Part shown: positions 2 to 22,227 of the stretch, one piece after another
Layout: every line of letters begins with the position of its first letter
Numbering within the stretch: position 1 is the first letter of the stretch
DNA from: Enterobacteriaceae bacterium
GTDB taxonomy: Bacteria > Pseudomonadota > Gammaproteobacteria > Enterobacterales > Enterobacteriaceae
Length of the DNA stretch: 42,524 nt
Reading direction: 5' to 3'
NCBI GenBank assembly: GCA_031253755.1
Contig: JAIRVT010000009.1
Coordinates: 1 to 42,524 of the forward strand
Made by a program: the position numbers and the translations under genes
Notes under the pieces: model-generated
The model's database searches: none
Seen by the model: the letters and a program-made list of their open reading frames with translations, nothing else
Told to the model about the DNA's origin: nothing

Positions 2-718
2 CTTAATGCACTACAGGAACTTGATGTACCTGAAGAGTATCTGGTTGAAGAAAAAATCCAAGGCAGGCTATTACATGTTGATGCAGCAGTATTCCGGCAT
101 AAGATTATCTATCAGGGCATCGGTGCTTACGCCTGTTCATTACTCGCTTCCGATCAAAGTGAACCCCGTCATTTTATCTGGCATACCCTGCTGCCGAACG
201 CGCCAGACAGCCATCGGCTGTTTGAATTTAATCGACAAGTATTGCAGGCATTCAATCTTGAATACGGTTTTACGCATACTGAAATTTTCATAGAAGAAAA
301 TACCAACAATCTCATACTTTGCGAAACCGCATCACGTCCACCGGGTCTCAGGCTATTTGACCTTCATGCGCAAGCCTATCGTAAGCATGTTTTTGATGTC
401 TTTATTGACGCATTAATTTCCCCTGCTTCGATTGACGAAGCGCCTTATTTCCCCATATCGAATACCGATCTCAATTGTATTGGCATGATCATTTTTAACC
501 CACAGATTGGAAAAATTAAATCCATAACACCGATAGAGGAAATGATTGATGAATATGTCATTGAATGGGCGCAATATGCTAAAGTCGGCAGTTACTTTTC
601 TAACACCCATTACACTGAAAAAATGGGATATATTATTTGCTCTGCAAAAAATGAATGTGAATGTCTGAAATATTTAAATAATTACAATAATAAATTCCGT
701 TATACAATCATAGAATAA
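2..718 (+). CDS. ATP-grasp ligase, C-terminal part (5' end outside window)
   Basis: The frame is open from base 2, so the start codon lies upstream of the window; 238 residues are visible. The segment YLVEEKIQGRLLHVD followed by VFRHKIIYQGIGAY is the ATP-grasp pattern of a conserved VEE-x-I-x-G strand before the C-terminal catalytic half. THTEIFI and, 15-20 residues later, LCETASRPPG supply the Mg-ATP-binding glutamates; the last motif matches the E-x-x-x-R-P-x-G signature of carboxylate-amine ligases. Such enzymes activate a carboxylate as acyl phosphate and join it to an amine, so an amide-forming step in the adjacent pathway is likely. The stop is 7 bases before the exporter start, which suggests one transcript. 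Family assignment is firm; the substrate is unknown. The last ~70 residues are AT-rich and less recognisable. Confidence 0.8.
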   Translation, partial: LNALQELDVPEEYLVEEKIQGRLLHVDAAVFRHKIIYQGIGAYACSLLASDQSEPRHFIWHTLLPNAPDSHRLFEFNRQVLQAFNLEYGFTHTEIFIEENTNNLILCETASRPPGLRLFDLHAQAYRKHVFDVFIDALISPASIDEAPYFPISNTDLNCIGMIIFNPQIGKIKSITPIEEMIDEYVIEWAQYAKVGSYFSNTHYTEKMGYIICSAKNECECLKYLNNYNNKFRYTIIE

Positions 719-725
719 GATTAAT

Positions 726-1940
726 ATGATGATAAGATACCTGTTTCTTATTTCTTTATTTATTAATGGTGTTGGTTCAAGTATTCTTGCTGTCGGGTAT
801 CCTTATATATTATTATCTGAGAATACACCAATGACATATTATTATTTAAGTATGGGAATGATATTTTCATTTACCTCTGTTGGTGCTTTGTTATGGGGAT
901 ATAAAATCGATTATTCAACTGATATTTGGCGGTTTCGGATGGTTATATTATTACTGGAGGTTTTTAGTACGTTGTTGCTATTGATATTATTATTTGGGAA
1001 GATTGAGTTTTCGCCTATTATGTTGCTTTTGTTTATTGCATTATTGGAGTTTCTTTTTGCCTATGAAATTCCATGGTCGCGCGTTGCATGGCATGAACTG
1101 AATGATTGGGCAGAGCAACAAGGGAGTAAGCATTTAAATGTTTCTCTCTATATTGTTATCACTACATCGCTGATTTCAGCTCTTGGCCCTGGGCTCGGTG
1201 CTTTACTGGGAATTACTCAGGGAATAGAGACACTTGTGGCGATCAAATTATTCTCTCTATTACCTTATTGTTATGTCTGCTATCTTATGATGGCAATACA
1301 GATAAAACGTACAGCAGAGCAAAAAACTCAGTTATTTGTTGGCGTAAGTGCTATATTTCAACAAAGCTATTATAAGATATTTGCCATTGCTATAGTTTTT
1401 GCAATTTTTTCCAATGCGTTTTTGATGGTGGCACTTCCTGTTGTTGTTATGGGAAGTTTAGCGAAGGAAAGTTATGAATTGGTTACGCTGTTCTATTTAC
1501 TCAGTGCCCTGATACCGATTTTCTGTACCACATTACTCGATAAAACCAATATTGGTAATTGTATTCAACGCTACCCCATTTCAATATTTATGGGAATGTT
1601 TATATTTGGTATTCTGTTTTTTCAACTACAAACATTCTATGTAAAATCATTTTTCTATTTGCTTTATAATATTGCCATAATTTATTTTAATATATTAATC
1701 ACCAAGACTATTTATCAGGAAGCATTGAAAATGCAACAAGGTCGCTTGTTTTCTTTATTTCAGGTAACAATGAATTTTTCATTTCCAATAGCTGCAATCA
1801 CGGTATCTATAGTTCCTGATTCCACTCAATATTTTCTACCCGCAGCTGGTTTTTCTATACTTTTACTGATTGCAATAGCTGTTTATTTAATAATTCAAAT
1901 GAATAAAGTCCCTGTTCCGGTTCATCATTGGCACAGGTAA
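726..1940 (+). CDS. MFS-type exporter
   Basis: 404 residues made almost entirely of hydrophobic stretches, compatible with 12 membrane helices. After the second helix GALLWGYKIDYSTDIWRFRM is a degenerate MFS motif A (G-x-x-x-D-x-x-x-R-x-R). No substrate-specific motif is recognised. It begins 7 bases after the ATP-grasp ligase stop with a poor Shine-Dalgarno, so translation may be coupled; ATG 729 is an alternative start. The gene is visibly more AT-rich than the core genes further right. Its position in a biosynthetic run suggests product efflux or self-resistance in the inner membrane; this is inferred from context only. Confidence 0.75.
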   Translation: MMIRYLFLISLFINGVGSSILAVGYPYILLSENTPMTYYYLSMGMIFSFTSVGALLWGYKIDYSTDIWRFRMVILLLEVFSTLLLLILLFGKIEFSPIMLLLFIALLEFLFAYEIPWSRVAWHELNDWAEQQGSKHLNVSLYIVITTSLISALGPGLGALLGITQGIETLVAIKLFSLLPYCYVCYLMMAIQIKRTAEQKTQLFVGVSAIFQQSYYKIFAIAIVFAIFSNAFLMVALPVVVMGSLAKESYELVTLFYLLSALIPIFCTTLLDKTNIGNCIQRYPISIFMGMFIFGILFFQLQTFYVKSFFYLLYNIAIIYFNILITKTIYQEALKMQQGRLFSLFQVTMNFSFPIAAITVSIVPDSTQYFLPAAGFSILLLIAIAVYLIIQMNKVPVPVHHWHR

Positions 1941-1952
1941 TATTAATAAAAA

Positions 1953-2057
1953 TATATGCAATAAACTTCAAGTTGCTATCCGCAACACGACGCGAAACTT
2001 TATATGTTTCCACGTAAATGGGAAATATCACACGCATATTGAAGTTGGATTGGTATA
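1953..2057. repeat. Degenerate MITE/ERIC-like palindromic element (copy D)
   Basis: Occupies most of the gap between the MFS and aminotransferase genes. It has TATA-type ends, TTCAAGTTGC near the left end, an internal inverted repeat (TTTCC...GGGAAA) and TTGAAGTTG just before the terminal GGTATA. The layout matches the elements at 34219-34312 and 9311-9370. It is decayed, so membership is tentative. Confidence 0.4.
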
Positions 2058-2077
2058 TTGATTGTTAGGATAATAAT

Positions 2078-3226
2078 ATGTCATATTTTAGACCTTATCT
2101 TGGTAATATCAGGATTGCTGATAATGTAAAATCCCGCTTGCAAACCGTTCTTGATAATAAAGCGGTGTTCAGGTATGCCACAGAGAGTCAATATTGCCGT
2201 CAGGCAGAAAGGTTGTTACAAAATATTCTGCATAGCCAGCATACCATTCTGCTGACAAATGGAACTGTCGCGCTCAAAGCGGCCTTACTCGGGCTTAGAC
2301 CCAAAATAGGGCAATGGGTTCTTATTCCTTCTATTTCATTTATCGCAACGGCCAACGCTGTGCTCAGTTGCGGATTAATTCCTGTTCTCGTTGATGTCGA
2401 TGACAATGGCATGATGTCTCCAGGAGCATTAAGCAAAACGATAAATCAAATGGATACCAAACCTCTGGCGGTTATTGCCGTACATCTGGAGGGCGCTGCT
2501 GCTTCAATTGCTGAAATCACCCAAATTTGCCTGCAACATAAGATGCACCTGATTGAAGACTGCGCACAAGCAATGGGGGTGAAATATCAAAATCAGTTTG
2601 TGGGCACATTTGGTGAATATGGCTGTTTCAGTTTTCAGGCCAATAAATTAATCAGCAGCGGTGAAGGGGGTTTACTGATTGCCAAAAATAATTCTTTGTT
2701 CGTCAATGCCTGCATGATGACTGATCACGGTGCTGAACGTACAGCCGAAGGTTACCCGGATTGGAGCAAGAGTATTGGTTTTGGTGATAATAATAAATTC
2801 AATGAAATACAAGCTGCATTGCTGATTAACCAGCTGGAGAATATCGAACAGTATCGTGCTTTATTAACAGAACGGTATCAGGAAATCCTGAAATATTTAC
2901 CTGCTGACTGGGTTACACCACGCCCGGAAGGGACAATACCCGTTTCTGTCTGGTTAAAACGCAGCAAATTACCGAAAAATCGTTTCAATACCGCATTGCT
3001 ATATGATTGGCAAGCTTGGGATCTGGCTAACCATCCGATTATAAAAAACCAGCTTTCTCCCTACGCTGACCGCTTCCCTTGGAGCCGACAAGAAAGTCCA
3101 TTGCCTGTATCAACATTAGAGAATCACGATATCATCGTAAGGGAGCGCATCTGCCTGCCTGTTCCTATTGATAATACTATTTACGAAAATGTCTTACAGT
3201 GGGCTATGGAAGGAAACCTATCATGA
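2078..3226 (+). CDS. DegT/DnrJ/EryC1/StrS-family PLP aminotransferase
   Basis: 382 residues, the usual size for the family. The N-terminal half has the cofactor-phosphate region (LLTNGTVALKAALLGL, residues ~60-75). The centre has IEDCAQAMG, whose Asp contacts the pyridine nitrogen, then FSFQANKLISSGEGG with the Schiff-base Lys and the GEGG loop. These enzymes are soluble and transfer an amino group, usually from Glu or Gln, to keto sugars or keto cyclitols. The start has AGGAT six bases upstream. The stop overlaps the next start (ATGA at 3223-3226), so the two are translationally coupled. The enzyme implies an amino-sugar or aminocyclitol unit in the product; the substrate cannot be read from sequence. 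Confidence 0.88.
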   Translation: MSYFRPYLGNIRIADNVKSRLQTVLDNKAVFRYATESQYCRQAERLLQNILHSQHTILLTNGTVALKAALLGLRPKIGQWVLIPSISFIATANAVLSCGLIPVLVDVDDNGMMSPGALSKTINQMDTKPLAVIAVHLEGAAASIAEITQICLQHKMHLIEDCAQAMGVKYQNQFVGTFGEYGCFSFQANKLISSGEGGLLIAKNNSLFVNACMMTDHGAERTAEGYPDWSKSIGFGDNNKFNEIQAALLINQLENIEQYRALLTERYQEILKYLPADWVTPRPEGTIPVSVWLKRSKLPKNRFNTALLYDWQAWDLANHPIIKNQLSPYADRFPWSRQESPLPVSTLENHDIIVRERICLPVPIDNTIYENVLQWAMEGNLS

Positions 3227-4074
3227 TGTCAGACAAGAACTTCTTTACACGGCTCAACAAAAACAACCTGCCTGTCCGATATGTGCTGGGAGGCTCTTGC
3301 ATCTGTTACGCAAAAGGCGTACCAGCCCGGCTTTCACTGCAAGATTTGCTCGATTCTGTGCTGCCTGCAATCATTGCTTCACAACACAATGCTCCGGTTT
3401 ATCTCTATTTTCAATCTCATGAAGCGATCATGATGGCTGACTTGCTGCATTTTGATCCTCAGCAAGCGAACCACAAAACAATGAGAGAGTGGTTAGAAGC
3501 TGGTATTGTTTATACTTTGAATCAGCTTAATATCCCTTTACCTCCCATTTATTGGGTGGATACCTCCGAAGATAAGATCCGCCGACATATTGAACAATGG
3601 GTTCCCCATATTAAGACGGTGTTGCCAGCTTCAATGCTATATGGACTCTACGCCAAAAAACCGGATGCCACTTACCCACAGGGAACCGGTGAAGAGAAGA
3701 TGATATTGGGTGTGTATTATCGCAACATTACCCTTTATACACCTGAATTCCTCAGCACTGCGCTTGACATACCGTCAGGGCAGGCGCTGTTTGTGGAAAA
3801 TACCACGCAACAAAAAGCAATCCAGATTTACTATCATGCCACCGGACAGAATTGCGATATGTTGCTCTACACACCGGCACCCAATACGCAAGGCAAAGAA
3901 ATGTGTCTGGGCAATAGTAATCATAAAATCGAGTTACGTCTTACAGCAAAACAGATTATGCAGCGTGCCGCTAAACTTGGTCATGACGATTATTATCAGG
4001 CCATCTTAAACCGACATTCTATTGTGGATATCATGCGAGGCTGGCAGTCAAAGGTATCAGGTAATGAAGCATAA
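3223..4074 (+). CDS. Unrecognised biosynthetic protein (weak class I aminoacyl-tRNA synthetase-like layout)
   Basis: 283 residues starting at ATG 3223, which overlaps the aminotransferase stop; AAGGA lies nine bases upstream and ATG 3226 is an equally possible start. No family is confidently recognised. There is no signal peptide or membrane segment, so it is probably cytosolic. The order of elements loosely resembles TrpRS/TyrRS: an early Gly-rich strand (YVLGGSCI), a strand PVYLYFQSHEA where synthetases have the 'iaD.ha' strand, MREWLEAGIVYTL, and a late GKEMCLGNSNHKIELRL where KMSKS would sit. Neither HIGH nor KMSKS is intact, so this is only a hint. The 3' end overlaps the kinase gene by 11 bases. 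The tight coupling suggests it acts in the same pathway. Confidence 0.6.
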   Translation: MMSDKNFFTRLNKNNLPVRYVLGGSCICYAKGVPARLSLQDLLDSVLPAIIASQHNAPVYLYFQSHEAIMMADLLHFDPQQANHKTMREWLEAGIVYTLNQLNIPLPPIYWVDTSEDKIRRHIEQWVPHIKTVLPASMLYGLYAKKPDATYPQGTGEEKMILGVYYRNITLYTPEFLSTALDIPSGQALFVENTTQQKAIQIYYHATGQNCDMLLYTPAPNTQGKEMCLGNSNHKIELRLTAKQIMQRAAKLGHDDYYQAILNRHSIVDIMRGWQSKVSGNEA

Positions 4075-5443
4075 AACTGTTGTGGTGATCAGAGGAACAC
4101 CGGCAAGTGGTAAATCCACAATATGCAATCGCTTAAAAGATGCCATGCTGGCACAGGGGTTAACTGTCTCCTATTTACCGTGGGATACTTTTCATCATTT
4201 TGTTGAACCAAGAACATACCTTACACAAAGGGTCATCATGGAAGATACCCTGCGGTTGTTAAAGGTGGCTGATGATTGCCTTGATGCGGGTAGTGATCTG
4301 ATCATTCTGGATGGCGTATTCATTTATCCTGAAGAACTTAATGCAATTCATTCCTTGTTTACGCGAAAGAATGTTCGAATTCTGCATTATAGGCTCGTTG
4401 CACAGGAATCAACGTTGATTATCCGTAATCAGGCGCGGGCTATAGAAGATCGTTTGCCCGCTTCCCGTATCAGAGAAGTTGCTCAGGATAGTTTGTGGAA
4501 TAACAATCTATCTGATGAAACAGGGTTTGATAGCGCGAAATATTCGCCGGACACTATTGTGGCGTTGATAAGCCAGACTATTATGCAACAATCTGCACCA
4601 ATTGCTGTTTTTGCCAATCCAACCGCCTCACACTGGTGGCATTTGGGAACTGCGTTGCGTTACCCTGAATTAAAGTGTTTTGAATATGTTGATCTGGTTT
4701 GGCAGGAAAGCCTCCAGCAGTGGCAAAGCAATACTTTCTTCGATTTCACGTTTACAGCTCAAGAAGAAAAAGAATTACTCTCTTTTTTAAAGCAGCAACC
4801 TGTTTTATTTAAGTATCTGAATGCGCAATCCCGTGCCTGTTTTCACCTGCATAATTTAGCGCAACAGCATGGTTTACGGTGTCATGAAGAAAACCGATGG
4901 CCAGCGCCCGTTATCAACATACCAGCGAAAACAACAGTGGCCGATTTTTTGAACCAATACTCAACCCGATTAAAGCGCAGCATTAAGAAAGCACGTACCC
5001 ACCGAACCGTTACACGCTACAGTACTTCGGGTCAAATTGAGCAGCTGTGGCAGGATGCGCTATATGTAGACACAAAGGGCTGGAAAATTCTTCAGCAAAG
5101 TGACATGCGCAGCCTGAACCGTGAAGACCTCCAATACCTTCCCGGCCTGTTATCCAAAAGCAACCATTATCATCTGGCGGTCACTTATGACGATAACGGC
5201 ACTCCCGGAGCCTGGTCATTGATGATAAATAACGGTGCAGGCCAATGGTATGCCGCGAAATGGGGTTGTAGCTATCAGGGCAGAGAAAAGTTAATGGGAA
5301 TTAATTGCCTAATTGACCATCTGGATGCGCTCTATTGTCCTTACGCTGGCCTTCAGGTTGATCTATGGGGCAGGGAAAATGAATTCTATGACCAGCTAGC
5401 CAATGAATATATTGAGCGGCTTCATCTCAGGGTCACACCATGA
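4064..5443 (+). CDS. P-loop kinase fused to FemAB/GNAT-like acyltransferase
   Basis: 459 residues from ATG 4064, chosen because the upstream in-frame ATG at 4022 lies well inside the preceding gene and this one begins directly before the P-loop strand. Residues 1-~185 are a small-molecule kinase-like domain: Walker A GTPASGKST at ~11-19, a DTFHH stretch, and ILDGVF as Walker-B-like strand. The fold family includes AAA_33, chloramphenicol phosphotransferase-like and PSTK/KTI12-like kinases. Residues ~200-459 look like the FemAB / 'Acetyltransf_6' family: RLKRSIKKART, a central AVTYDDNGTPGAWSL strand pair, and the terminal LQVDLWGRENEFYDQLANEY, which matches the family's 'D-x-x-G-x-e-x-y-k' ending. 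FemAB-type domains use aminoacyl-tRNA or acyl-CoA donors. The stop overlaps the next start (ATGA). Substrates are unknown. Confidence 0.72.
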   Translation: MKHKTVVVIRGTPASGKSTICNRLKDAMLAQGLTVSYLPWDTFHHFVEPRTYLTQRVIMEDTLRLLKVADDCLDAGSDLIILDGVFIYPEELNAIHSLFTRKNVRILHYRLVAQESTLIIRNQARAIEDRLPASRIREVAQDSLWNNNLSDETGFDSAKYSPDTIVALISQTIMQQSAPIAVFANPTASHWWHLGTALRYPELKCFEYVDLVWQESLQQWQSNTFFDFTFTAQEEKELLSFLKQQPVLFKYLNAQSRACFHLHNLAQQHGLRCHEENRWPAPVINIPAKTTVADFLNQYSTRLKRSIKKARTHRTVTRYSTSGQIEQLWQDALYVDTKGWKILQQSDMRSLNREDLQYLPGLLSKSNHYHLAVTYDDNGTPGAWSLMINNGAGQWYAAKWGCSYQGREKLMGINCLIDHLDALYCPYAGLQVDLWGRENEFYDQLANEYIERLHLRVTP

Positions 5444-6306
5444 TATCTCACGGCAATCGGTTTTCCCCGCAAGAAACAGTGTCTCAGCAAGATATCAATA
5501 TCATGAACTATGGCTGCTCAGTACGGGACTTTTTCCGCGAAGATCTACAATCTGTGTCGACTCATGGCTATTGCCTGCTGCCGGAATGGATATGCCAAAG
5601 CATGGTTGAATCTGTTTACGCAGCCAATTGGCAACCACTCTTCTATCCTGTTTTACCACCAGAGCAGGCCGATATGATTTTGCAGGCGGATATCCAGACT
5701 ATGATGGCAATGCTAAGCCATCGTCCACAACCACGAGCCATACTTTTCGCCCATCCTTTAGGGTATATCGACCCGGGTTGTCTGGAATTTTTGCGGGAAA
5801 TTCAACACAACCACAATATTCATGTATTTCTGGATTTTTCTCAGGGCTATGGAAAGAAAGATTGCTTACAGGAATTACGGCATGTTCATGCCGCTTATTA
5901 TTCTTTCAACGGCAATAAACTTATTCATACCGGTGGTGCATTACGCTTTCGTCTAACAAACAGAGAACATATTCCCTCTTTTGTCAGAAATACTCTTGCT
6001 GTCTTTTATGCTGCTGCTGAAGAAAAATTCACGGCATTAAAAGAACACTTACAATCTCACTTTATTGAAGATGATATCCACGATATCTCGCTGTACACTT
6101 CTTATCAATCAAGTCCTTATCGTACTGTATTAAATTGGGCGCTATGTTCACCCTCCATGCAAGCATTACTTAAACGTCAGGGGCTGGTTCAGCCGTTACT
6201 TGCTGAACCCCGACAAGAAAAAGGGTATTGCAGCTTAAATTATCATCAATGGCGTAAGGAAGTTATGTTGATGTTTAGTTCACCCAGAGTTGAATGGAGT
6301 CAGTAA
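5440..6306 (+). CDS. Short PLP-aminotransferase-like protein
   Basis: 288 residues, about 90 shorter than normal DegT-type aminotransferases. The middle aligns with the PLP core: FLDFSQGYGKKD corresponds to the 'Asp-x-Ala-x-x-x-G' cofactor strand, and YYSFNGNKLIHTGGALRF corresponds to 'FSF-x-x-x-K-x-x-x-x-x-GG', with the potential Schiff-base Lys present. An N-terminal part with the usual phosphate-binding Gly-Thr motif is reduced or missing. It could be a heteromeric partner of the full-length aminotransferase at 2078-3226, a diverged PLP enzyme, or non-catalytic. Start ATG 5440 overlaps the previous stop and the stop is one base before the next start, so it sits inside the coupled block. 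Assignment rests on these two motifs only. Confidence 0.6.
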   Translation: MISHGNRFSPQETVSQQDINIMNYGCSVRDFFREDLQSVSTHGYCLLPEWICQSMVESVYAANWQPLFYPVLPPEQADMILQADIQTMMAMLSHRPQPRAILFAHPLGYIDPGCLEFLREIQHNHNIHVFLDFSQGYGKKDCLQELRHVHAAYYSFNGNKLIHTGGALRFRLTNREHIPSFVRNTLAVFYAAAEEKFTALKEHLQSHFIEDDIHDISLYTSYQSSPYRTVLNWALCSPSMQALLKRQGLVQPLLAEPRQEKGYCSLNYHQWRKEVMLMFSSPRVEWSQ

Positions 6307-6307
6307 A

Positions 6308-7393
6308 ATGTTAGAACTCAAACAAGTTACCCCTCAATCTCCCTTGTGGAATTCATTTCTTCATCTTTATGGAGAATATTTTCAGCGCCATTGGCCAGAA
6401 GTCTTCGGGGGTCAGCCAGAAGAGTCGATTGCAAAGGAAAATCATATCATTCTTGAGCAACGCATCCTGCAAGGTGACAGAGGGTTATTTTTGTTGCTAA
6501 ATGGCGAAAAATCAGCGGGGTTAGCCAATGTATATCTTGAGCGGGAAGAAAAAGTCACCTTGAATATTGCTGAATTTTATATTAAGGATGAATACCAACG
6601 CCGGAAGCTGGGTTATGGATTATGGCATGCCATGCTGCAATGGGGACGTCGCCACGGCGCCACTCGTGTTCATCTGGAGACAGATATCGGCAAAAATGCC
6701 AACTTTTTTTGGCAATCACATGGGCTTTCAAGCTATCAGGTAGAGGAACGCATACACTACGATGGTTCTATTCCTCCTCTAAAGATACTCTGGATCAGGC
6801 ATGGGCAAATTATTCCGCTTGATCATCTTGATTACTGCCCTGAAGATAATTTGATCGCTCTTGATGCCGCGTCAATCAAACAGGCTGAAGATATTGGCAG
6901 GCGCATATTACCGAAACTGCCGGGACAAAACATTTATACCTCACCTCAACGCCGGGCACTTGAAACCGCAAAAGCACTCATCTCAGCGTGCAAATCTTGT
7001 TCAATACAAGAACGTGATGCGCTTTGTGAATTCTTTCCAGAAGAACTTATTGGCATGAAACTGGCCGATATTCCGCAACGTTATGGGGAAGATTATGCTT
7101 ATCGGTTATTGCATACTCCCCTTGATTTACCTTTCAACGATTCAGAACAGGTGATGGACGCGGTTGATAGAGTCCATCGCTTTCTTATGCAAATTGGTGA
7201 TGAGCTTTCAATGTCTTCTATGCGAATTATTATCTCCCATCAAAATCTGCATAACATATTCTTGGCTCATTTAATGACAGATGATCTCAATCTTTCTGGA
7301 CGATTGCATCTTAATTATCTACATGGCAGTACTTTTTTATACTGTCCTTATACTAAACAATTTGATATAGAAAATATAAACATTCCTTTATGA
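6308..7393 (+). CDS. GNAT acetyltransferase-histidine phosphatase fusion
   Basis: 361 residues. ATG 6308 follows the previous stop by one base with TGGAG ten bases upstream; the in-frame ATG at 6290 is less likely. Residues ~1-150 are a GNAT fold: strand EFYIKDEYQRRKLGYGLWHAM contains the acetyl-CoA loop (R-R-K-L-G-Y-G) and NANFFWQSHGL is the usual C-terminal 'a..fY...GF' segment. Residues ~158-361 are a histidine phosphatase: LWIRHGQ with the catalytic His at ~165, YTSPQRRALETA, and a late IIISHQNLHN providing the second His. All expected catalytic positions appear present. A plausible role is N- or O-acylation plus removal of a phosphate from a pathway intermediate. The fusion itself is unusual. 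Confidence 0.78.
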   Translation: MLELKQVTPQSPLWNSFLHLYGEYFQRHWPEVFGGQPEESIAKENHIILEQRILQGDRGLFLLLNGEKSAGLANVYLEREEKVTLNIAEFYIKDEYQRRKLGYGLWHAMLQWGRRHGATRVHLETDIGKNANFFWQSHGLSSYQVEERIHYDGSIPPLKILWIRHGQIIPLDHLDYCPEDNLIALDAASIKQAEDIGRRILPKLPGQNIYTSPQRRALETAKALISACKSCSIQERDALCEFFPEELIGMKLADIPQRYGEDYAYRLLHTPLDLPFNDSEQVMDAVDRVHRFLMQIGDELSMSSMRIIISHQNLHNIFLAHLMTDDLNLSGRLHLNYLHGSTFLYCPYTKQFDIENINIPL

Positions 7394-7402
7394 GAGAATA
7401 AT

Positions 7403-8563
7403 ATGTTAAAAAATATTCCTTATATTATTTTTGACGCCGATCCATTTTGTTTTGGACCAATATCCACCACATTAAATGTGGTGGAAAAATTAAGGCAGCG
7501 AAATAAATTAATATCGGACACTAAATTTATTTTATTAGGCACTCTCACTTCTTCTCAATTAGGTCAAAAATCTGGCCTGTTTCATGATATTTATGAATGT
7601 GATACCACTTCGGCTACAGACCTTTCCCGCTATTCTGAACTTATTGAAAATGCAAACTTATATATCAGCAATACTAACCCTAATTCGATTGATTTTGTTG
7701 CAAAGTTTGACACACCCATTATCTACATCGATACTCTATTTTGGATGTGGGATAATCTTCATGTCGATCTGCGCCAAACTGAAAAAACATTTATTCAGAA
7801 CTTTCATGGCATAGAGCGAAATATTAAACGATGCCGTGATAAACTTGGCAATTATCAAATCATTCCTCCAATTCTTCATAATTCCCTACAACAATTCATA
7901 AAAGATGAACCTAATCAAGAAGGTATATTAATTACTCTTGGTGGTATTGATACCGTCTACGCCGATACAACCGATTTTTATTACCATTTTCTCGAAGAGT
8001 TATTGTCTATTCCTCAGCTGCAAAATGAAACCAACATGACTATTGCTGGTGGAGGTAAAACGATTGTAAATCTGGCAGCAAGATTTGCGCAAACGCATCC
8101 TCACATCCATATTGGTTGTTTTGCCAGACATGAATTTCTGCAAAAATTGCGCAGTGCTCGTAAGGTATTAGCTAATCCGGGGCTGACAACATTTTATGAA
8201 TGTATTGCTCTCAATAAAGATGTTTTCTTTTTACCACCACAAAACTATAGTCAACAATTACAATTAGATGTATATCTACAGCATTATTATAGTCCTGAAT
8301 ACGGTTTCTTATGGCAACCGGAATACGGTTATCCTGATATTCCCTCATACCTGCCGGAGAAAGAGGGTTTAGCGTTAATTAAAGAATCCAATAACTTATT
8401 TATTAATAATCCTACAGAAAGAAAACGGGCTATGGATAAGATAAGCCAATTTCTGGTAAATGAGAACAAAAGCGCTCATTATTGTTGTGATATTTTACAA
8501 AATAATTCATGTGATATTATTGTTGATTATATTGAAAGTAGAGTTATCAATCAAAAATTATAA
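7403..8563 (+). CDS. Putative GT-B-fold glycosyltransferase
   Basis: 386 residues, AT-rich. The N-terminus FDADPFCFGPISTTLNVVEKL has the early Gly-Pro and following helix of a GT-B N-domain. The C-terminal half starts with GILITLGG (~residue 174), then MTIAGGGKT, HIHIGCFARHEFLQKL and ANPGLTTFYECIALNKDVFFLPP. That is the donor-binding pattern of MurG/UGT/PseG-like enzymes (G-G-x-x-T-x-x-E). No signal peptide or membrane segment is seen, so it is probably cytosolic. It starts 9 bases after the fusion gene stop. Sugar transfer to the pathway scaffold is the obvious reading; donor and acceptor are not predictable. A related nucleotide-sugar hydrolase is possible. Confidence 0.62.
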   Translation: MLKNIPYIIFDADPFCFGPISTTLNVVEKLRQRNKLISDTKFILLGTLTSSQLGQKSGLFHDIYECDTTSATDLSRYSELIENANLYISNTNPNSIDFVAKFDTPIIYIDTLFWMWDNLHVDLRQTEKTFIQNFHGIERNIKRCRDKLGNYQIIPPILHNSLQQFIKDEPNQEGILITLGGIDTVYADTTDFYYHFLEELLSIPQLQNETNMTIAGGGKTIVNLAARFAQTHPHIHIGCFARHEFLQKLRSARKVLANPGLTTFYECIALNKDVFFLPPQNYSQQLQLDVYLQHYYSPEYGFLWQPEYGYPDIPSYLPEKEGLALIKESNNLFINNPTERKRAMDKISQFLVNENKSAHYCCDILQNNSCDIIVDYIESRVINQKL

Positions 8564-8703
8564 TTCAGTATCATATTTTAAATATAGCATAATAATGTTT
8601 ATGTGATTTATTTAAATAATGGTTCTATAACTTCTGTATAAAGAAATAAATATTGTCATCTATTCAAAAAATATTAAAACTTATCTCAATAAGAGGCGAA
8701 CCT

Positions 8704-9240
8704 ATGTCTATGATATTTTCCGATGTTAAAGTCTTTGTTGGCGGTCCTATTCAGCATGCATTGAAATTAAGGACACTAGACAATAAGTTACAAGTACACA
8801 TTAAATCTGCTATTCATCAGCTAGAATCATTTGGTGCAGAAGTTTTTTCAGCTCATCGTACAGAGCAATTTGGCAGTACAACACACTTATTTACACCAGA
8901 GGAAGTTTCTCAACGGGATCGCCAATGGATGGATCGGTGTGACATTTTTGTTGCTATTTTACCTGTCTGCTCACAACAGAAACATTTAATTAGAACAGAT
9001 GGAACCCATATTGAGTTAGGTTGGGCTTCCGCCTTAAGACGTCCAATCATATTGGTTACTGAAAAACCCTTTGATGACTCTGCCAGCCATCTACTCAAAG
9101 GCCTGTCAGCTATTGCTCAAGTTCATCACATTCCCCTCACTGATTTTGAACATGATCCGGCTATATTAATGCATACGATTCAATTTGTAATAGCGAAAGG
9201 GCTTACGCAAAAACGTTCATCCGTTGCAGAAAATGAGTAA
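8704..9240 (+). CDS. Nucleoside 2-deoxyribosyltransferase-like N-glycosidase
   Basis: 178 residues from ATG 8704 with AAGAGGCG upstream; an in-frame TTG at 8653 has no such site. VFVGGPIQHA at the N-terminus is the sugar/phosphate loop of the family. QRDRQWMDRCDIFVAILP and GTHIELGWASALRRPIILV form the core, the latter carrying the nucleophilic Glu of deoxyribosyltransferases and of the related CMP hydrolases of nucleoside-antibiotic pathways (MilB, BlsM). It would cleave or exchange the N-glycosidic bond of a nucleoside or nucleotide. It is separated from the coupled block by 140 AT-rich bases with no gene, so it may have its own promoter, but orientation and theme fit the cluster. Confidence 0.75.
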   Translation: MSMIFSDVKVFVGGPIQHALKLRTLDNKLQVHIKSAIHQLESFGAEVFSAHRTEQFGSTTHLFTPEEVSQRDRQWMDRCDIFVAILPVCSQQKHLIRTDGTHIELGWASALRRPIILVTEKPFDDSASHLLKGLSAIAQVHHIPLTDFEHDPAILMHTIQFVIAKGLTQKRSSVAENE

Positions 9241-9310
9241 GTTAGGGTCTTACGTTCCTATTCAGCGAAATTTATCTGATATTCGGTCACGTTCTCAATA
9301 ATTAGGTGCT

Positions 9311-9370
9311 GTGATAAACTCACCACTTTTTAGTGAGATATAAGGTGCGCCTTGAAAGGCGACTGGTATA
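9311..9370. repeat. MITE-like palindromic element, partial (copy E)
   Basis: Lies just upstream of proB. A hairpin (CTCAC...GTGAG) is followed by GATATAAG and then CCTTGAAAGGCGACTGGTATA-type end. The right half resembles the element at 34219-34312 (hairpin, GATATAAG, TTGAAAG, TATA). The left end is not clear. Confidence 0.4.
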
Positions 9371-9406
9371 GTATTTTTTCAAATTAATCATAATGGCAGG
9401 AAGATG

Positions 9407-21723: not shown

Positions 21724-21816
21724 GGTGAGGTGGCCGAGAGGCTGAAGGCGCTCCCCTGCTAAGGGAGTATGTGGTTAAGAGCTGCATCGAGGGTTCGAAT
21801 CCCTCCCTCACCGCCA
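21724..21816 (+). tRNA. serV: tRNA-Ser (anticodon GCU)
   Basis: 93 bases with the long class II variable arm; GGTGAGG/CCTCACC acceptor stem, GCT anticodon within CCCCTGCTAAGGG, GGTTCGAATCC T-arm and encoded CCA. Near-identical to E. coli serV, including position downstream of csrA. Confidence 0.96.
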
Positions 21817-21825
21817 TTTATAAAT

Positions 21826-21902
21826 GCATCCATAGCTCAGCTGGATAGAGTACTCGGCTACGAACCGAGCGGTCGGAGGTTCGAATCCTCCTGGATGCAC
21901 CA
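21826..21902 (+). tRNA. argV: tRNA-Arg (anticodon ACG), copy 1
   Basis: 77 bases; GCATCCA/TGGATGC acceptor, CTACGAA anticodon loop (ACG, read as ICG after deamination of A34), GGTTCGAATCC T-arm, encoded CCA. Nine bases after tRNA-Ser. Confidence 0.96.
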
Positions 21903-21988
21903 CTTTAACACCGCGATTTACTAGTTATCTGAATTCTGAAACATTTGGCAATCATTAGCGCCTGAACAGAAAAAAGAAAACCGACAAT

Positions 21989-22065
21989 GCATCCATAGCT
22001 CAGCTGGATAGAGTACTCGGCTACGAACCGAGCGGTCGGAGGTTCGAATCCTCCTGGATGCACCA
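21989..22065 (+). tRNA. tRNA-Arg (anticodon ACG), copy 2
   Basis: Identical to copy 1. The 85-86 base spacers on either side share patches of similarity, indicating unit duplication of tRNA plus spacer. Confidence 0.96.
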
Positions 22066-22150
22066 TATTTAATATCGTGATTTCATCGTGATATTCATAT
22101 TCTGAAAGTAAGCACATAAGCAATCTGATCAGAATAAAAAAACAGATAAC

Positions 22151-22227
22151 GCATCCATAGCTCAGCTGGATAGAGTACTCGGCTACGAACCGAGCGGTCG
22201 GAGGTTCGAATCCTCCTGGATGCACCA
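22151..22227 (+). tRNA. tRNA-Arg (anticodon ACG), copy 3
   Basis: Identical to copies 1 and 2; last gene of the tRNA operon, followed by a terminator eight bases on. Confidence 0.96.

What the first reader, a model, noticed from the sequence alone, without database searches (positions are those of the whole stretch)
2..9240. Undescribed biosynthetic locus combining amide-forming, amino-sugar and nucleoside-type enzymes
Seen: nine co-directional genes, five of them coupled by overlaps (3223/3226, 4064/4074, 5440/5443) or a 1-base gap (6306/6308). Known: ATP-grasp ligases make amides, DegT-type enzymes make amino sugars, NDT-like enzymes cut or swap N-glycosidic bonds, FemAB-like domains transfer aminoacyl or acyl groups, MFS proteins export. 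No NRPS/PKS module is present, so standard module-based cluster detection could miss it. Inferred: a peptidyl amino-sugar or nucleoside-like metabolite.
Basis: partly seen in the sequence, partly recalled or inferred. Interest (0 to 1): 0.85.

Follow-up and report, generated by a model that had tools for sequence, protein, structure and literature searches.

The report
Putative cytosine-nucleoside antibiotic gene cluster
A run of ten genes kept together in about half of the Xenorhabdus genomes examined looks like a new Gram-negative version of the pathway that Streptomyces uses to make cytosine-sugar antibiotics such as blasticidin, with unusual amino-acid-attaching enzymes; its product is still unknown.

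Summary
The nine co-directional genes are real. Base 1 is a contig end; in the 15 Xenorhabdus relatives fetched with this block, a tenth gene (radical SAM/SPASM) precedes a full-length ATP-grasp gene. The block occurs in 15 of 29 other genus genomes, under purifying selection, and all ten genes occur in Bordetella ansorpii and an Oligoflexia MAG.

The overlooked key is 7403-8563, a distant cytosylglucuronate (CGA) synthase homologue (TIGR04467, E=7e-12, far below its cut-off). The 'NDT' is a CMP N-glycosidase relative (BlsM, E=7e-17). The DegT enzyme groups with those beside other CGA-synthase homologues (99/98). The core thus resembles blasticidin/mildiomycin/arginomycin logic.

The tailoring differs: a kinase fused to a domain folded like aminoacyl-tRNA-dependent transferases, and a 283-aa protein folded like TrpRS/TyrRS without sequence similarity. 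The radical-SAM enzyme is nearer BtrN than BlsE. Searches of the held library showed no report of it. Product unproven. New variant of a known kind.

The parts
2..718 (+). ATP-grasp amide ligase, C-terminal fragment (full length 447-457 aa in relatives)
   Evidence: NF005543 E=7.8e-7, below its cut-off; full-length orthologue PF13535 ATP-grasp_4 E=6e-7, over its cut-off; contig end at base 1
726..1940 (+). membrane exporter, MFS-like
   Evidence: no own Pfam hit; 3 of 7 orthologues hit MFS_1, best 3e-5; no PDB profile hit at E<=1
2078..3226 (+). DegT-family PLP sugar aminotransferase, grouping with DegT proteins beside CGA synthase homologues
   Evidence: PF01041 E=1e-58; one side of a branch, 99/98; Lys motif SFQANK present
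3223..4074 (+). 283-aa protein with predicted class Ic aminoacyl-tRNA-synthetase-like fold; invariant GGxC and PN..G..M..G
   Evidence: AF2 pLDDT 87; the 50 Foldseek hits shown are all TrpRS/TyrRS, engineered ones included, best E=1e-6; no sequence support
4064..5443 (+). P-loop kinase (N-terminal) fused to tandem-GNAT / Fem-like transferase (C-terminal)
   Evidence: AAA_33 E=4e-9; P-loop GTPASGKS; C-term fold like MprF and Sba18/Sbb17; homologous domains in three Bacillota CGA loci are PF13480, the window's own half has no Pfam hit
5440..6306 (+). short PLP enzyme, DegT-like, Lys and Asp positions kept
   Evidence: PF01041 E=0.0045, below its cut-off; D132, Q135, K160 invariant
6308..7393 (+). 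GNAT acetyltransferase fused to histidine phosphatase
   Evidence: PF00300 E=5e-19, PF00583 E=5e-9; RHG and SH motifs
7403..8563 (+). distant cytosylglucuronate (CGA) synthase homologue, glycosyltransferase
   Evidence: TIGR04467 E=7e-12, 45 bits vs cut-off 300; 25% identity to annotated Streptomyces CGA synthase, E=2e-18
8704..9240 (+). CMP N-glycosidase homologue (BlsM/MilB/BcmB relative)
   Evidence: BlsM 5vto E=7e-17, 4jen, MilB 4jem; profile hits only these in PDB at 1e-8

Best explanation
The locus is a divergent, Gram-negative sub-type of the cytosine-nucleoside pathways that run through cytosylglucuronic acid. Proposed order (all steps inferred from homology, none shown). (1) The 8704-9240 enzyme hydrolyses CMP to free cytosine. 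(2) The 7403-8563 glycosyltransferase joins cytosine to a UDP-uronic acid, most simply UDP-glucuronate, giving CGA or an analogue. (3) The radical-SAM/SPASM enzyme, beyond the left edge, oxidises the sugar, by BlsE-like decarboxylation or by BtrN-like alcohol dehydrogenation. (4) The DegT enzyme, perhaps with the short PLP protein, puts an amino group on the sugar. (5) The ATP-grasp enzyme and the Fem/MprF-like transferase form two amide bonds to amino acids; the transferase probably takes aminoacyl-tRNA, and the synthetase-like 283-aa protein supplies or handles the activated amino acid. (6) The fused kinase, phosphatase and GNAT domains probably mask and unmask the compound for self-protection. 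(7) An MFS-like protein exports it. The product is most likely a peptidyl cytosine nucleoside that inhibits translation.
For: CGA synthase homology; CMP N-glycosidase assignment with catalytic Glu and most ribose/phosphate contacts kept (residue roles from passages of PMC4081090). Searches made with the CGA-synthase protein alone found neighbours that were not searched for: of 23 non-Xenorhabdus loci, NDT-like in 19, radical SAM in 17, DegT in 15 (some loci are near-duplicates). DegT tree: 15 chosen cluster rows on one side of a branch, 99/98, against 17 other DegT rows. An annotated Streptomyces plasmid cluster has CGA synthase, blsE, blsF, DegT, MFS and ATP-grasp in a row. Ten-gene set in Bordetella ansorpii and an Oligoflexia MAG. 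Transferase fold; MilH of mildiomycin is called a putative tRNA-dependent aminoacyltransferase (passages of PMC11784345). UDP-sugar dehydrogenase family PF03721 in 30 of 30 genus genomes (the family is broader than UDP-glucose dehydrogenase). Purifying selection.
Against: TIGR04467 score is 45 bits against a cut-off of 300. MilB's base-stacking Phe22 is Ile and the F-L-x-x-P-F motif is broken, so the base could differ. The radical-SAM enzyme lacks BlsE's GGEP and CxMC, its best PDB relative with a BlsE-free profile is BtrN, BlsE only at E=5e-4, and the tree joining it to BlsE-type enzymes is weak, 85/50. It is not in the window's own assembly. The window's MFS-like protein shows no similarity to the Streptomyces MFS. 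The aaRS-like reading rests on fold alone. No product is known.
Confidence: 0.7

Rival explanations
1. The locus makes a nucleoside-like compound with a base other than cytosine, or a uronoside of a different small acceptor; the glycosidase and glycosyltransferase have shifted specificity.
For: Phe22 to Ile and Arg23 to Gln at the base pocket (my mapping); CGA synthase score far below cut-off.
Against: Glu62, Asp78, Gly99 and Glu103 equivalents are kept and Ser97 is Thr; PDB profile hits at 1e-8 are only CMP/hydroxymethyl-CMP-hydrolysing enzymes.
Confidence: 0.17
2. A gougerotin-like route: the radical-SAM enzyme acts as an alcohol dehydrogenase and DegT makes 4-amino-CGA that keeps its carboxylate; the GNAT-fold domain uses aminoacyl-CoA as proposed for GouJ/GouK, not tRNA. 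This is a variant inside the best explanation, not a different kind of locus, so its odds overlap with it.
For: BtrN is the best PDB relative of the radical-SAM enzyme with a BlsE-free profile; gougerotin roles from passages of PMC12835213; the ATP-grasp enzyme needs a carboxylate.
Against: No CoA-ligase family was hit in the block; the fold matches put MprF and aminoacyl-tRNA-dependent peptide synthases first, though TM-scores are only about 0.5.
Confidence: 0.35
3. A surface-polysaccharide or cell-envelope amino-sugar locus; NDT and glycosyltransferase similarity incidental.
For: DegT, GNAT and glycosyltransferase folds are common in such loci (recalled).
Against: No flippase, polymerase or lipid-linked-sugar family was hit in the block; the DegT falls outside the 17 other DegT rows; NDT is a CMP hydrolase relative.
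Confidence: 0.05
4. A decaying or non-functional relic in Xenorhabdus.
For: Fragments between yccS and tfoX in G013 and G014; a lone CGA-synthase frame beside a broken yccS in G008; NDT split in G009.
Against: Intact frames and dN/dS 0.035-0.24 in the five strains compared, window included for eight genes.
Confidence: 0.06

Closest known systems
Blasticidin S / mildiomycin / arginomycin clusters of Streptomyces (CGA pathway)
   Same: CMP N-glycosidase, CGA synthase, radical SAM, DegT aminotransferase and ATP-grasp homologues are represented (pathway from passages of PMC3715490 and PMC11784345)
   Different: compared with the Streptomyces NBC_00467 locus: 22-33% identity, MFS with no similarity; BlsF unlike the window glycosyltransferase; no arginine-modifying gene hit in the block; radical SAM without GGEP/CxMC; adds the aaRS-like protein, kinase-transferase fusion, second short PLP protein and GNAT-phosphatase fusion
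Gougerotin cluster (gouA-N, gouM)
   Same: 4-amino-CGA core, amide tailoring and MFS exporter (passages of PMC12835213)
   Different: no gou homologues were compared here; gougerotin amino-acid activation is described as CoA-based
BtrN (radical SAM dehydrogenase of butirosin)
   Same: best PDB relative of the radical-SAM gene by a BlsE-free profile, E=5e-11 over the SPASM part, and by single sequence
   Different: aminocyclitol, not nucleoside, pathway (recalled)
Sba18/Sbb17, MprF and FemX aminoacyl-tRNA-dependent transferases
   Same: predicted fold of the KinFem C-terminal half
   Different: about 12% identity, TM about 0.4-0.5; fused to a P-loop kinase; homologous domains are filed as PF13480
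Other entomopathogen nucleosides: 4'-thiothymidine, 3'-amino-3'-deoxyguanosine, puromycin-like X. bovienii cluster
   Same: nucleoside chemistry in the same group of bacteria
   Different: different genes: thmA-C (passages) and Pur6-type (passages); the 3'-ADG paper was seen only in search listings and its compound name is recalled

Membership tests
CGA-type peptidyl nucleoside clusters | CMP N-glycosidase of the BlsM/MilB/BcmB family | tested here: met
   the only PDB hits at the 1e-8 limit
CGA-type peptidyl nucleoside clusters | MilB-family base-pocket motif F-L-(G/A)-(G/A)-P-F | tested here: not met
   F-V-G-G-P-I in window; the unnamed homologue beside the Streptomyces NBC_00467 CGA synthase also departs, with Tyr
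CGA-type peptidyl nucleoside clusters | CGA synthase above the TIGR04467 equivalog cut-off | tested here: not met
   45 of 300 bits, E=7e-12; four Bacillota relatives 77-182, Streptomyces coeruleorubidus 575
CGA-type peptidyl nucleoside clusters | DegT aminotransferase related to those beside CGA synthases | tested here: met
   one side of a branch, 99/98, 15 chosen rows against 17
CGA-type peptidyl nucleoside clusters | product contains a cytosine pyranoside | not testable with these tools
   needs metabolomics
BlsE (cytosylglucuronate decarboxylase) | CxxxCxxC and auxiliary-cluster cysteines | tested here: met
   invariant C36, C40, C43, C266, C285, C331, C335 in 9 rows; gene taken from relatives, not from the window
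BlsE (cytosylglucuronate decarboxylase) | GGEP and CxMC motifs | tested here: not met
   GGEA/GGES and CxFC in the two Xenorhabdus rows, Bordetella and Oligoflexia
BlsE (cytosylglucuronate decarboxylase) | BlsE is the nearest solved relative | tested here: not met
   BtrN 5e-11, BlsE 5e-4; the 6e-91 used a profile that contained a BlsE
Class Ic aminoacyl-tRNA synthetases | fold | tested here: met
   the 50 hits shown (of 136 at E<=0.001) are all TrpRS/TyrRS, best E=1e-6, TMq up to 0.62, rmsd 4-10 A
Class Ic aminoacyl-tRNA synthetases | sequence similarity and HIGH motif | tested here: not met
   hhalign probability under 2% to small TrpRS, TyrRS and CDPS alignments (two of seven TrpRS rows were wrong ORFs, and only two of the five CDPS genomes were over the family cut-off); no HIGH at the expected place, my reading
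Aminoacyl-tRNA-dependent GNAT transferases | tandem-GNAT fold nearest to MprF/Fem/Sba18 | tested here: met
   (50 of 69 hits at E<=0.001 shown; TM about 0.5), model pLDDT 79.8
Aminoacyl-tRNA-dependent GNAT transferases | use of aminoacyl-tRNA | not testable with these tools
   needs assay
NRPS/PKS clusters | condensation, adenylation, ketosynthase or carrier domains | tested here: not met
   none hit in the ten proteins

The most novel reading that the evidence does not exclude
The 283-aa protein is a new natural-product branch of the class Ic aminoacyl-tRNA-synthetase fold that lost HIGH and carries an invariant GGxC cysteine; it holds an activated amino acid (adenylate, thioester or aminoacyl-tRNA) and passes it to the Fem/MprF-like half of the kinase fusion. 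With the Bordetella, Oligoflexia, Bacteroidota, Paenibacillus, Blautia and gut Clostridia/Bacilli loci, the CGA-synthase neighbourhoods would define a phylum-spanning, largely unread family of cytosine-nucleoside compounds, including in the human gut.
Probability: 0.3. Interest if true: 0.87.

Novelty: new variant of a known kind. Interest (0 to 1): 0.74.

Why it matters
CGA-type nucleosides such as blasticidin and mildiomycin inhibit translation, and the three papers of the held library that use the CGA terms searched are all about Streptomyces-type producers. MilB-type hydrolases outside that group are known (bacimethrin's BcmB; PMC4081090 passages). A conserved ten-gene version in Xenorhabdus, with CGA-synthase neighbourhoods across several phyla, would open a new source of such compounds, gives a direct test of how amino acids are attached to them, and offers a possible new use of an aminoacyl-tRNA-synthetase fold. 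It has no NRPS/PKS module, so module-based mining may pass over it (inference; no mining tool was run).

Tried and rejected
Surface polysaccharide: rejected on gene content and the DegT tree. Puromycin-like and 4'-thiothymidine clusters: different key genes (passages). BlsE as the identity of the radical-SAM gene: suggested, then withdrawn because that profile contained a BlsE; a profile without one favours BtrN. Sequence link of the 283-aa protein to TrpRS, TyrRS or CDPS: none by hhalign (one search was flawed because several reference proteins were read in the wrong frame, and two of seven TrpRS rows were still wrong ORFs). Promoter and terminator scan: no more than in shuffles. Repeats at the block's right edge: none in the window, one unremarkable inverted pair in L041. 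An early note of mine called the X. budapestensis CGA-synthase copy interrupted; on checking, its frame is open over 381 aa and the stop is its natural end. Standalone CGA homologues in X. innexi and X. stockiae: other contexts, not explained. Two weak CGA-like loci, L092 and L093, have none of the other genes at E<=1e-3 and may be ordinary glycosyltransferases. Tree rows left out: the DegT tree used 15 of the DegT rows beside CGA homologues (L079, L082, L090, most Xenorhabdus copies and the second DegT-like ORFs of L077, L078 and L088-L091 were left out) and 17 of the loci (cluster copies and short matches left out); the radical-SAM tree used 18 cluster rows and 17 of 19 picked others (two lacked the CxxxCxxC motif). 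The E. coli and phage collections were not searched.


Full report
Observation. The nine genes, their common direction, the three overlaps and the 1-base gap are as described. The window is the whole of contig C57 of a 3.0-Mb, 82.9%-complete assembly, so the first gene is cut by the contig end. proB and proA (named from their sequence, recalled; not searched) follow at 9404 and 10521. The last gene most likely starts at 8704: 10 of 13 relatives checked have an in-frame stop within 17 codons upstream of the aligned start codon.

Conservation. The 283-aa protein at 3223-4074 was found in 15 of 29 other genomes of the genus and in none of 69 genomes outside it; a profile of it matched 3 of 246 genomes drawn across the family, all of the genus and one of them the window's own. 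The genus is Xenorhabdus: contigs of the same lengths came back under names such as X. kozodoii, X. griffiniae, X. szentirmaii, X. indica and X. vietnamensis. Twenty regions were fetched; 15 hold the block. In these 15 the eight genes from ATP-grasp to the glycosyltransferase keep order and strand (full-length hits about 69-89% identical); the NDT-like gene follows in 14 (in G005 the contig ends and it lies on another contig; in G009 it is split between two frames). All 15 add a radical-SAM gene before a full-length ATP-grasp gene. dN/dS is 0.035-0.24 in the pairs compared among five strains. At least one of the flanks yccS and tfoX is seen in 11 of 15 regions, both in nine; in the window's own genome these two genes stand about 100 bases apart without the cluster, which sits before proBA.

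Identity of the core. The 7403-8563 protein matches NCBIfam's CGA synthase model at E=7e-12 but with only 45 of the 300 bits required, and an annotated Streptomyces CGA synthase at 25% identity, E=2e-18. The 8704-9240 protein has BlsM, BcmB and MilB as its PDB hits (best E=7e-17), and a profile of the family finds only these at 1e-8. By my mapping onto MilB residues named in passages of PMC4081090, Glu62, Asp78, Gly99 and the catalytic Glu103 are kept, Ser97 is Thr, Phe22 is Ile and Arg23 is Gln. A positive residue at Arg23 marks hydroxymethyl-CMP enzymes, so plain CMP is the likelier substrate if the base is cytosine; the Phe22 change leaves room for another base.

Independent co-occurrence. 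A genome scan with the CGA-synthase alignment alone returned loci in Bordetella ansorpii, an Oligoflexia MAG, a Bacteroidetes MAG, Anoxybacillus, Paenibacillus, Clostridia and Bacilli MAGs, Blautia massiliensis, Streptacidiphilus, Streptomyces, an Acidimicrobiaceae MAG and Promicromonospora (36 loci, 14 of them Xenorhabdus). With the Streptomyces plasmid locus that makes 23 loci outside Xenorhabdus; NDT-like genes occur in 19, radical SAM in 17 and DegT in 15 of them (E<=1e-3). Some loci are close copies (for example L077-L079, L084-L085), so these are not 23 independent cases. Three loci counted as lacking radical SAM carry one by annotation or at E=5-6e-4 (L057; L075 and L083). Bordetella ansorpii has all ten genes in the Xenorhabdus order at 41-64% identity; the Oligoflexia MAG has all ten with the NDT first and the GNAT-phosphatase on the other strand. 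Streptomyces sp. NBC_00467 has CGA synthase, blsE, blsF, DegT, MFS and ATP-grasp in a row near beta-methylarginine genes; its DegT is 33% identical to the Xenorhabdus one, E=2e-56, its blsE 24%, ATP-grasp 22%, NDT-like neighbour 25%, while its MFS shows no similarity. In a tree of 15 chosen cluster DegT proteins and 17 other DegT proteins from six of the genomes, the cluster ones form one side of a branch, 99/98; the Xenorhabdus-Bordetella-Oligoflexia group (87/79) joins the two Streptomyces rows in a seven-row group with 99/99 (some outgroup branches are long, and eight rows have unusual composition). The radical-SAM tree gives the cluster rows together only weakly, 85/50, with the Xenorhabdus type next to the Bacteroidetes one and not next to BlsE.

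The radical-SAM step. The gene has the CxxxCxxC motif and four further invariant cysteines but GGEA in place of GGEP and Phe in place of the BlsE Met; in PMC3715490 (passages) the GGEP residues were crucial for BlsE, while changing the Met had little effect. A profile without any BlsE finds BtrN first, 5e-11, and BlsE at 5e-4. I therefore leave decarboxylation and alcohol dehydrogenation open. BtrN followed by a DegT aminotransferase is the butirosin pattern (recalled).

Tailoring. The 4064-5443 protein is a P-loop kinase (AAA_33) fused to a C-terminal half whose homologues in three Paenibacillus and Anoxybacillus CGA loci are PF13480. Its model (pLDDT 79.8) is closest to MprF-type domains, with the aminoacyl-tRNA-dependent peptide synthases Sba18 and Sbb17 (solved with streptothrisamine) at ranks 11, 13 and 16 and FemX lower; TM-scores are about 0.5 and general GNAT proteins also appear. 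In mildiomycin, MilH is called a putative tRNA-dependent aminoacyltransferase (passages of PMC11784345). The 3223-4074 protein has no Pfam or NCBIfam relative (one Pfam match at E=0.07, below cut-off), but its model (pLDDT 87) gives only TrpRS and TyrRS among the 50 PDB matches shown. Its invariant GGxC and PN..G..M..G motifs may sit where HIGH and KMSKS lie in synthetases (recalled; I had no residue-level structural alignment), with HIGH lost. Profile-profile comparison gave no sequence link. A synthetase-like fold beside a tRNA-type transferase suggests a dedicated amino-acid activation and transfer pair; this is inference. A review of aminoacyl-tRNA-dependent enzymes describes synthetase-like and GNAT-fold examples in other pathways (abstract and passages of PMC12945691). 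The 6308-7393 GNAT-phosphatase fusion and the kinase suggest cryptic masking and unmasking; also inference. Gut Bacilli locus L089 has an ABC protein with the ABC_tran_Xtn domain, a pattern typical of ribosome-protection ABC-F proteins (recalled), which fits a ribosome-directed product there.

Literature. Search listings for Xenorhabdus with peptidyl nucleoside, nucleoside antibiotic, ATP-grasp or blasticidin, for CGA terms (three papers, all on Streptomyces-type producers) and a last one showed no description of this cluster. The global Xenorhabdus/Photorhabdus cluster survey, PMC9177418, does not hold the words nucleoside, cytosine or ATP-grasp in its main text (a term search; not read). The MilB paper, whose Figure 5 shows homologues in several species, does not name Xenorhabdus, Bordetella, Paenibacillus or Clostridium in its text. 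The library lacks most subscription papers, so this is not proof of absence.

Verdict. A real, conserved, selected biosynthetic operon-like block; best read as a new variant of CGA-type cytosine-nucleoside biosynthesis. The core is supported by several lines; the base, the exact sugar, the amino acids and the bioactivity are unproven.

Noticed in passing
G000:C56 (L176:5438-5544) and window 9240-9404: The yccS-tfoX site that holds the cluster in many relatives is empty in the window's own genome; the cluster lies before proBA, so it has moved or arrived separately.
   Followed up: partly
L055, L056, L054: Fragments of the cluster between yccS and tfoX in two Xenorhabdus genomes, and a lone open CGA-synthase frame beside a broken yccS in a third (X. 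budapestensis): repeated loss.
   Followed up: partly
L052:13804-14946; L053:4697-5854 (-): Lone CGA-synthase homologues (72-74% identical) in X. innexi (near AadA, NUDIX and CmlA-like genes) and X. stockiae (near condensation-domain, PKS and ABC transporter genes).
   Followed up: partly
L071:11705-12271 (-): Bordetella ansorpii has an extra lone GNAT, 41% identical to the GNAT half of the GNAT-phosphatase: possibly a separate self-protection acetyltransferase.
   Followed up: no
L089:8753-14387, L090, L091: Gut Bacilli/Erysipelotrichaceae MAGs with a CGA-synthase-like region inside a 697-699-aa ORF next to radical SAM and DegT genes; in L089 an ABC-F-like gene follows (L090 and L091 not scanned for it).
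   Followed up: no
L087:6985-16749: Blautia massiliensis locus with NDT-like genes, radical SAM genes, CGA synthase homologue (182 bits, below cut-off), carbamoyltransferase and a protein-kinase-like gene: a gut candidate for a CGA-type compound.
   Followed up: no
window 21724-22227: One tRNA-Ser and three tRNA-Arg genes in a row.
   Followed up: no
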